Below, one piece after another: positions 15,667-15,973 of a stretch of DNA of 64,000 bases. The first letter of the stretch is position 1. Each line of letters begins with the position of its first letter. Source of the stretch: Lusitaniella coriacea LEGE 07157 (GTDB lineage Bacteria; Cyanobacteriota; Cyanobacteriia; Cyanobacteriales; Spirulinaceae); assembly GCF_015207425.1 (NCBI RefSeq), contig NZ_JADEWZ010000006.1:62001-126000 (forward strand), read 5' to 3'. The position numbers were made by a program, and so were the translations under genes. The notes under the pieces are model-generated. The model made no database searches. It had not been told where the DNA came from and saw nothing but the letters and a program-made list of their open reading frames with translations.

Positions 15667-15741
15667 TTAGCGATCGCGGTACTTTCTCGCACTATGAAGA
15701 ATGCGAAGAATTTGAACGGTTTTGAGCCATTTAATTGGCAT
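15667..15741 (-). pseudogene. ParE/RelE-type toxin remnant with internal deletion
   Basis: A 24-codon frame begins with ATG inside the end of the antitoxin gene, as toxin genes of ParE/RelE modules often do. It reads MPIKWLKT, typical of the beginning of such toxins, followed directly by [16 protein letters not shown] and a stop, typical of their last strand and tail. The ~70 central residues that should lie between are absent. The simplest reading is an in-frame internal deletion that destroyed the toxin while leaving both ends. The similarity of both ends is judged from memory of the family. Confidence 0.55.
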
Positions 15742-15973
15742 GGGTTAATTTCTCAAACATGGCTTCCACTTCATCGTTGCTGGCAAACTCTTCAGCTTCG
15801 GCTTCGGCTATTCCTTGGCGAATCTCTTCAAGCTGCCACTGGTGGATTTCGAGGTAGAGTGAAATTGCTTCGTTAAGAATGTAAGTGAGATTGCGATCCA
15901 GTCCGGCTGCGATCGCGTCTAGAGCTGCTCTTTTTTCACTATCGAGTCGGAAAGTAACATTATCTTTGCTCAT
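15731..15973 (-). CDS. Ribbon-helix-helix antitoxin-like protein
   Basis: An 80-residue protein starting [18 protein letters not shown], the pattern of a CopG/ParD-type ribbon-helix-helix DNA-binding domain (beta strand NVTFRLD, helices around [21 protein letters not shown]). The C-terminal half is acidic ([20 protein letters not shown]), as expected for a toxin-neutralising tail. The ATG at 15971-15973 has GGAG upstream. It is followed, overlapping by 11 nt, by a gutted toxin frame, so it is now probably an orphan antitoxin. It may still repress its own promoter or protect against a related toxin elsewhere. Confidence 0.85.

What the first reader, a model, noticed from the sequence alone, without database searches (positions are those of the whole stretch)
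15667..15973. Toxin-antitoxin module with an internally deleted toxin
The intact antitoxin (15731-15973) is overlapped by a toxin start, but the toxin frame is only 24 codons: the family-like first residues MPIKWLKT run straight into the family-like last residues [16 protein letters not shown]. This is a clean loss of the middle with the frame kept. It gives a snapshot of how a module is disarmed while the antitoxin, which may repress other loci, is kept.
Basis: partly seen in the sequence, partly recalled or inferred. Interest (0 to 1): 0.55.

Follow-up and report, generated by a model that had tools for sequence, protein, structure and literature searches.

The report
Antitoxin gene with a gutted toxin
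In this cyanobacterium a two-gene toxin-antitoxin unit has lost the middle three quarters of its toxin while the antitoxin gene stayed whole, an ordinary kind of decay that turns up many times over in related genomes.

Summary
On the minus strand an intact 80-residue ribbon-helix-helix antitoxin (15973-15731) overlaps by 11 bases a 24-codon frame (15741-15667). Loci whose antitoxins are 78-79% identical carry, at the same overlap, an intact 92-93-residue ParE-family toxin (Pfam ParE_toxin 6e-21). The window frame equals toxin residues 1-7 joined to 77-92: 69 codons (207 bases) are missing, in frame. On the model of an intact orthologue both helices and two of four longer strands are gone, so toxicity is not expected. 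No other close copy of this toxin was found in the genome. Direct repeats at the endpoints were not shown: the nearest proxies share one base. The operator-like block upstream is conserved with the nearest intact modules and has one exact copy in the genome, so repression of other loci is unsupported. Toxin decay with the antitoxin kept is common here: 20 of 69 intact antitoxins with room downstream lack a full toxin, while 40 of 40 close toxin hits sit beside an antitoxin hit. Solitary antitoxins are well documented. A new example of a known kind; low interest.

The parts
15731..15973 (-). intact antitoxin gene, 80 aa, ribbon-helix-helix, ParD/CopG-like
   Evidence: frame; RHH_1 E 5.8e-4, 20.2 bits against a cut-off of 20.5; 6xrw_B, CopG-family ribbon-helix-helix protein, E 4.8e-9; orthologues
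15667..15741 (-). toxin remnant, 24 codons: ParE-family residues 1-7 fused in frame to 77-92
   Evidence: overlap of 11 bases with the antitoxin kept as in intact modules
15720..15721 (-). deletion junction (between AAA of Lys7 and ACC of Thr8); 207 bases missing relative to L010/L011; position ambiguous by one base (A)
15670..15677 (.). GCGATCGC octamer (HIP1, name recalled) that encodes most of the last three residues (RDR) of the remnant; not present at this place in L010/L011
16005..16024 (-). operator-like block TTGCAATGCAAGATATTGCA upstream of the antitoxin, conserved with L010/L011; the wider block shared with L011 is about 15984-16025
14868..15641 (-). NmrA-like NAD(P)-binding gene, 257 aa, starting 25 bases after the remnant's stop codon
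   Evidence: NAD_binding_10 1.3e-36
16048..17256 (-). larC (nickel-pincer cofactor biosynthesis), upstream gene on the same strand

Best explanation
This is a ParDE-family type II toxin-antitoxin module disarmed by an in-frame deletion of 69 toxin codons (shown by comparison). The remnant keeps only the first and last strands and loses the two helices and the two longer strands between (shown on a predicted orthologue), so it should be neither toxic nor able to bind the antitoxin (inferred). The antitoxin stays whole and keeps its operator-like repeat block, so it most likely still dimerises, binds its own promoter region and represses itself as a solitary antitoxin (inferred). The toxin's first codons survive because they overlap the end of the antitoxin gene: a deletion reaching into them would damage the antitoxin (inferred from the 11-base overlap). 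Nothing shows that frame was kept by selection; one in three deletions would keep it.
For: Intact 92-93 aa toxins at the identical -11 overlap in L011, L010/L038, L014, L040 and others. The toxin is ParE_toxin 6e-21, RelE_StbE above cut-off, and a model of the L038 toxin (pLDDT 91) matches ParE of 6xrw and 5cw7. Strands 2-5 and 77-85 are kept; helices 7-23 and 25-41 and strands 58-61 and 67-74 are lost. The antitoxin shows no faster change than in paired lineages: window-specific 10 synonymous/10 non-synonymous against 11/12 (L011) and 14/10 (L010). Upstream block: local alignment score 64 with L011 and 42 with L010, 0 of 500 single-base shuffles as high in either.
Against: The window antitoxin differs at 4 of 30 well-kept positions (paired antitoxins: 0 to 7), two of them in the C-terminal, presumably toxin-binding half (G61E, D62E); one paired antitoxin, L021, differs at the same two. 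No sigma-70-like promoter or terminator match lies nearby, not even at the operator-like block. The operator-like block is not general: 18 of 36 intact loci listed have no TGCA or one in the 130 bases upstream. No expression or binding data; one genome of the species. The closest proxies are only 78-79% identical in antitoxin DNA (190-191 of 243), so the ancestral sequence and the number of deletion steps are unknown.
Confidence: 0.88

Rival explanations
(A rival only to the view that the antitoxin is still useful, not to the deletion.)
For: Solitary antitoxins of one related lineage are decaying: L024 and L056 share a toxin junction and show 2.5 synonymous against 16.5 non-synonymous differences (pN/pS 1.68); L061 has a stop and L069 lacks its start region.
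Against: Another pair with a shared toxin deletion (L032, L036) shows pN/pS 0.17, i.e. constraint after toxin loss if the deletion was inherited. The window antitoxin and its operator-like block look little changed.
Confidence: 0.35
2. Anti-addiction: the solitary antitoxin is kept because it neutralises toxins of incoming elements that carry the intact module.
For: One of the two nearest intact modules (L011) lies beside a MobA/MobL relaxase gene, which suggests a mobilisable element. Anti-addiction by chromosomal antitoxins is described (PMC2654758, passages read).
Against: No neutralisation data; the two changed residues in the C-terminal half could weaken it. In the plasmid collection no antitoxin match (30 records) and no toxin match (2786 records) reaches 60% identity.
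Confidence: 0.2
3. A real small gene of 24 codons.
For: The frame is open and keeps the start and the overlap.
Against: No such product was seen at this place in the other loci; the two parts match the ends of a larger family; the last residues are altered.
Confidence: 0.02
4. Assembly or sequencing artefact.
For: Draft genome of 114 contigs; one genome; no reads available.
Against: The contig is 191 kb and the site is in its interior; the end of the remnant carries further changes, as a true pseudogene would.
Confidence: 0.04

Closest known systems
Chromosomal ParDE of Pseudomonas aeruginosa (PDB 6xrw)
   Same: Both partners match: toxin by sequence (E 2.5e-8) and fold (TM 0.87), antitoxin by sequence (E 4.8e-9)
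   Different: Intact pair there; here the toxin has lost 69 codons
PaaA2-ParE2 (PDB 5cw7)
   Same: Toxin sequence (E 3.6e-11) and fold
   Different: The antitoxin search did not return PaaA2
Decayed chromosomal TA loci such as ccdO157 of E. coli
   Same: Chromosomal TA modules in decay by deletion or nonsense mutations (reviews PMC7167474 and PMC2654758, passages read; the original paper is not held)
   Different: Different TA family, host and lesion
Orphan antitoxins of Klebsiella pneumoniae and E. coli
   Same: Antitoxins without a toxin are abundant (2253 occurrences in Klebsiella, PMC7192599; also PMC10790755; passages read)
   Different: Those passages count orphans; here the lesion itself is visible in the remnant. 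The E. coli paper also counts many orphan toxins, unlike what I see in this family

Membership tests
ParDE-type type II toxin-antitoxin module (intact) | upstream ribbon-helix-helix antitoxin gene | tested here: met
   6xrw_B, antitoxin of a ParDE complex, E 4.8e-9; RHH_1 E 5.8e-4, just under Pfam's cut-off; NCBIfam RelB-like below cut-off
ParDE-type type II toxin-antitoxin module (intact) | overlapping downstream ParE-fold toxin of about 90 residues | tested here: not met
   24 codons only, 69 missing; met in orthologues
ParDE-type type II toxin-antitoxin module (intact) | operator upstream of the pair | tested here: inconclusive
   TGCA-repeat block shared with the nearest intact modules but not with all; binding not testable
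ParDE-type type II toxin-antitoxin module (intact) | toxin inhibits growth and antitoxin relieves it | not testable with these tools
   needs the bench
Solitary (orphan) antitoxin | intact antitoxin reading frame of 50-150 aa (size range of PMC7192599) | tested here: met
   80 aa, no stop, start aligned with orthologues
Solitary (orphan) antitoxin | no toxin gene next to it or elsewhere of its own type | tested here: met
   downstream gene is an NmrA-like protein; no close toxin in the genome; four distant PF05016 genes lie elsewhere, each with a small frame of its own beside it
Conserved small protein | same-length product in other species | tested here: not met
   not seen in the loci; no search with the 24-residue peptide itself was made in other genomes

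The most novel reading that the evidence does not exclude
In this antitoxin family the antitoxin regularly outlives its toxin and, in some lineages, is kept by selection as a stand-alone gene; in the window it and its operator now head a run of genes and control the NmrA-like gene that begins 25 bases after the remnant.
Probability: 0.12. Interest if true: 0.4.

Novelty: new member of a known kind. Interest (0 to 1): 0.2.

Why it matters
It is a clear worked example of how an addiction module is taken apart: the toxin goes first, the antitoxin and its operator-like block stay. Around it lies a family of mostly cyanobacterial loci with many different toxin lesions (nonsense, frameshift, insertion sequence, deletion between short repeats), some with constrained and some with decaying antitoxins, which could be used to test whether solitary antitoxins are kept for a function or only fade slowly.

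Tried and rejected
Endpoint repeats: with L010 and L011 as proxies the junction shares one base (A); a longer A-rich match would need an ancestral AAA codon before Thr77, which cannot be checked. Inconclusive.

Antitoxin as regulator of other loci: the 20-base pattern has 1 exact site in the genome (its own), none with one mismatch, six with two mismatches, against one control match; the control (pattern read backwards) has another dinucleotide make-up, so the small excess means little. I did not look at what lies beside the six sites.

Empty site by synteny: in G007 of the same family the NmrA-like gene and larC lie about 0.29 Mb apart; I did not check the other family genomes for this, and no relative with the window's neighbourhood was found among the loci held.

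Close relatives: of 13 family genomes only the window's own has this antitoxin (one other weak hit, E 1.1e-9), so the deletion cannot be dated by strains.

Known-defence library: no PADLOC match for either protein.

No tree was built; separate toxin losses are judged by eye from different lesions.

Full report
What is there. The window lies in a draft genome (G000, 5.86 Mb, 114 contigs, interior of a 191 kb contig). That it is a cyanobacterium is inferred from the named records with the closest antitoxins (more distant ones there are Elusimicrobia). On the minus strand the order is larC (17256-16048), antitoxin (15973-15731), the 24-codon frame (15741-15667), and an NmrA-like NAD(P)-binding gene (15641-14868). 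The antitoxin's start is taken at the ATG at 15973 because orthologues align from there; the tool's longer frame starts at a TTG at 16030.

The intact orthologue. Of 388 genomes of the order (drawn from a larger group), 71 have a match to the antitoxin at E 1e-3. The nearest, L011 (79% identical) and L010 (78%; both its proteins are the same as in the named UBA11370 record L038), have a toxin of 92 and 93 residues that begins 11 bases before the end of the antitoxin's stop codon, exactly as the window's 24-codon frame does. The L011 toxin is a ParE_toxin (E 6e-21), passes NCBIfam's RelE/StbE cut-off and matches solved ParE proteins (5cw7 E 3.6e-11). A model of the L038 toxin from five aligned toxins (pLDDT 91) matches ParE of the P. 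aeruginosa ParDE complex 6xrw (TM 0.87) and of 5cw7. The antitoxin also finds its best solved match in 6xrw (E 4.8e-9).

The deletion. The window frame equals residues 1-7 plus 77-92 of the L011 toxin, with one residue more at the end. The 5' piece is identical to L011 at 19 of 21 bases and the first 45 bases of the 3' piece at 35 (37 to L010). So 69 codons, 207 bases, are missing with frame kept. On the L038 model this leaves strands 2-5 and 77-85 and removes both helices (7-23, 25-41) and the strands 58-61 and 67-74. The end, RDR, departs from the family's PD; it is encoded largely by a GCGATCGC octamer, of which the window has 75 copies (1.17 per kb). With L010 and L011 as stand-ins for the ancestor only one base is shared at the two endpoints. 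No other close copy of this toxin was found in the genome.

The antitoxin and its operator. Upstream lies a block with TGCA repeats. The intergenic stretch of the window aligns to the upstream stretch of L011 with score 64 and of L010 with score 42 (0 of 500 shuffles as high for each; single-base shuffles). Of the 14 loci I chose for that test, mostly ones seen to have TGCA or newly fetched, seven had 0 of 500 shuffles as high (L011, L010, L012, L141, L142, L157, L029) and seven had between 2 and 29, so the block is not significant in most of those seven. Of 36 intact loci listed, 18 have no TGCA or one in 130 bases upstream. The 20-base core occurs once in the genome. The antitoxin's coding changes are like those of paired lineages (10 synonymous and 10 non-synonymous changes special to the window, 11/12 for L011, 14/10 for L010), though synonymous sites are near saturation (dS 1.2 to 2.0). 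It departs from 4 of 30 positions kept in at least 85% of 32 paired antitoxins (E4D, D28N, G61E, D62E), against 0 to 7 in the paired ones themselves; L021, a paired locus, also differs at 61 and 62.

How common this is. In one search I classed the loci held around an antitoxin match plus the 29 stretches fetched (the places left unfetched have E 1.4e-7 or weaker). Four loci were set aside beforehand (L001, L038, L039 as duplicates, L045 as spurious); two pairs of rows from different species carry the same or nearly the same antitoxin (L025/L027, L055/L057) and were counted separately. Of 88 loci, 81 are at E 1e-15 or better. Four of these end at a contig edge, and eight fail my antitoxin criterion (L006, L061, L065, L066, L069, L145, L148, L155); L148 and L066 miss it by one residue of coverage, and L148 has a full toxin. 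Of the remaining 69 with an intact antitoxin, 49 have a full toxin (at least 84 of 93 profile positions in one frame; L050, with a stop close to its end, is counted as full) and 20 do not. In the reverse direction, all 40 places found with the toxin at E 1e-18 or better in the same order lie directly beside an antitoxin match; that antitoxin match is weak or partial for G284, G294, G307 and G325, and several of the 40 toxins are themselves damaged (for example stops in G366, G352, G294 and G104). Weaker toxin hits were not checked. The lesions differ: single stops (L046, L143, L064), frameshifts (L052, L060), an insertion with a DDE_3 transposase at about codon 65 (L059), losses after roughly codon 6 to 22, and in L028 a clean loss between two copies of GAAAATTA at the toxin's start and end, read against L034 and L048. 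Two pairs among the 20 (L024/L056, L032/L036) share a lesion. Some loci show no remnant or next to none (for example L062, L058), so loss there is inferred, not seen, and some lesions may be sequencing errors in drafts.

What happens to such antitoxins. L032 and L036, which share a deletion, differ at 11.5 synonymous and 7.5 non-synonymous sites (pN/pS 0.17); L024 and L056, which share another, at 2.5 and 16.5 (1.68). So one pair looks constrained and one looks decaying. The window cannot be placed between these because only one genome of it was seen; of 13 family genomes none but the window's has this antitoxin, apart from one weak hit.

What it is most likely. A ParDE-type module that has become a solitary antitoxin. 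The toxin's first codons survive in most of the 20 broken copies by my reading, and the simplest reason is the overlap: they contain the antitoxin's last codons. Whether the antitoxin still works, and for what, is inference. That orphan antitoxins are abundant, and may serve as anti-addiction genes or regulators, is in print (PMC7192599, PMC10790755, PMC2654758; TA decay also in PMC7167474; passages read). PMC10790755 also reports abundant orphan toxins in E. coli, which I do not see in this family. I did not search for a report of this very locus; the searches were for the general phenomenon, and of their results I read only those four papers' passages.

Operon idea. The NmrA-like gene starts 25 bases after the remnant's stop. 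The scan of 15550-16120 found no promoter-like and no terminator-like match, so a transcript that begins upstream of the antitoxin would probably run into it; where transcription begins is unknown. The close copies of that gene in six other genomes (G007, G016, G021, G024, G025, G028) are in genomes without a match to this antitoxin, and no other antitoxin locus searched has it nearby. This is a possible new wiring, untested.

Noticed in passing
L028, just after the antitoxin (compare L034, L048): Whole toxin gene lost between two copies of GAAAATTA, one at the toxin start/antitoxin end and one at the toxin end; a clear repeat-mediated disarming in a related locus.
   Followed up: partly
L059, about 184 to 1370 bases after the antitoxin's stop: Toxin split near codon 65 by an insertion with a DDE_3-type transposase gene.
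   Followed up: partly
L024, L056, L061, L069: Four loci of one genus share a toxin junction; the antitoxin is whole in two, has a stop in L061 and lacks its start region in L069: stages of antitoxin decay after toxin loss.
   Followed up: partly
L032, L036: Shared toxin deletion with the antitoxin still changing mostly at synonymous sites (pN/pS 0.17).
   Followed up: partly
L011, beside the module: A MobA/MobL relaxase gene lies next to one of the nearest intact modules, suggesting a mobilisable element.
   Followed up: partly
window, 75 sites: GCGATCGC octamer at 1.17 per kb, one of them forming the end of the remnant frame.
   Followed up: partly
upstream of the antitoxin in L010, L011, L017, L029, L142 and others: Runs of TGCA at short spacing, an operator-like pattern that differs between subgroups of this antitoxin family.
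   Followed up: partly
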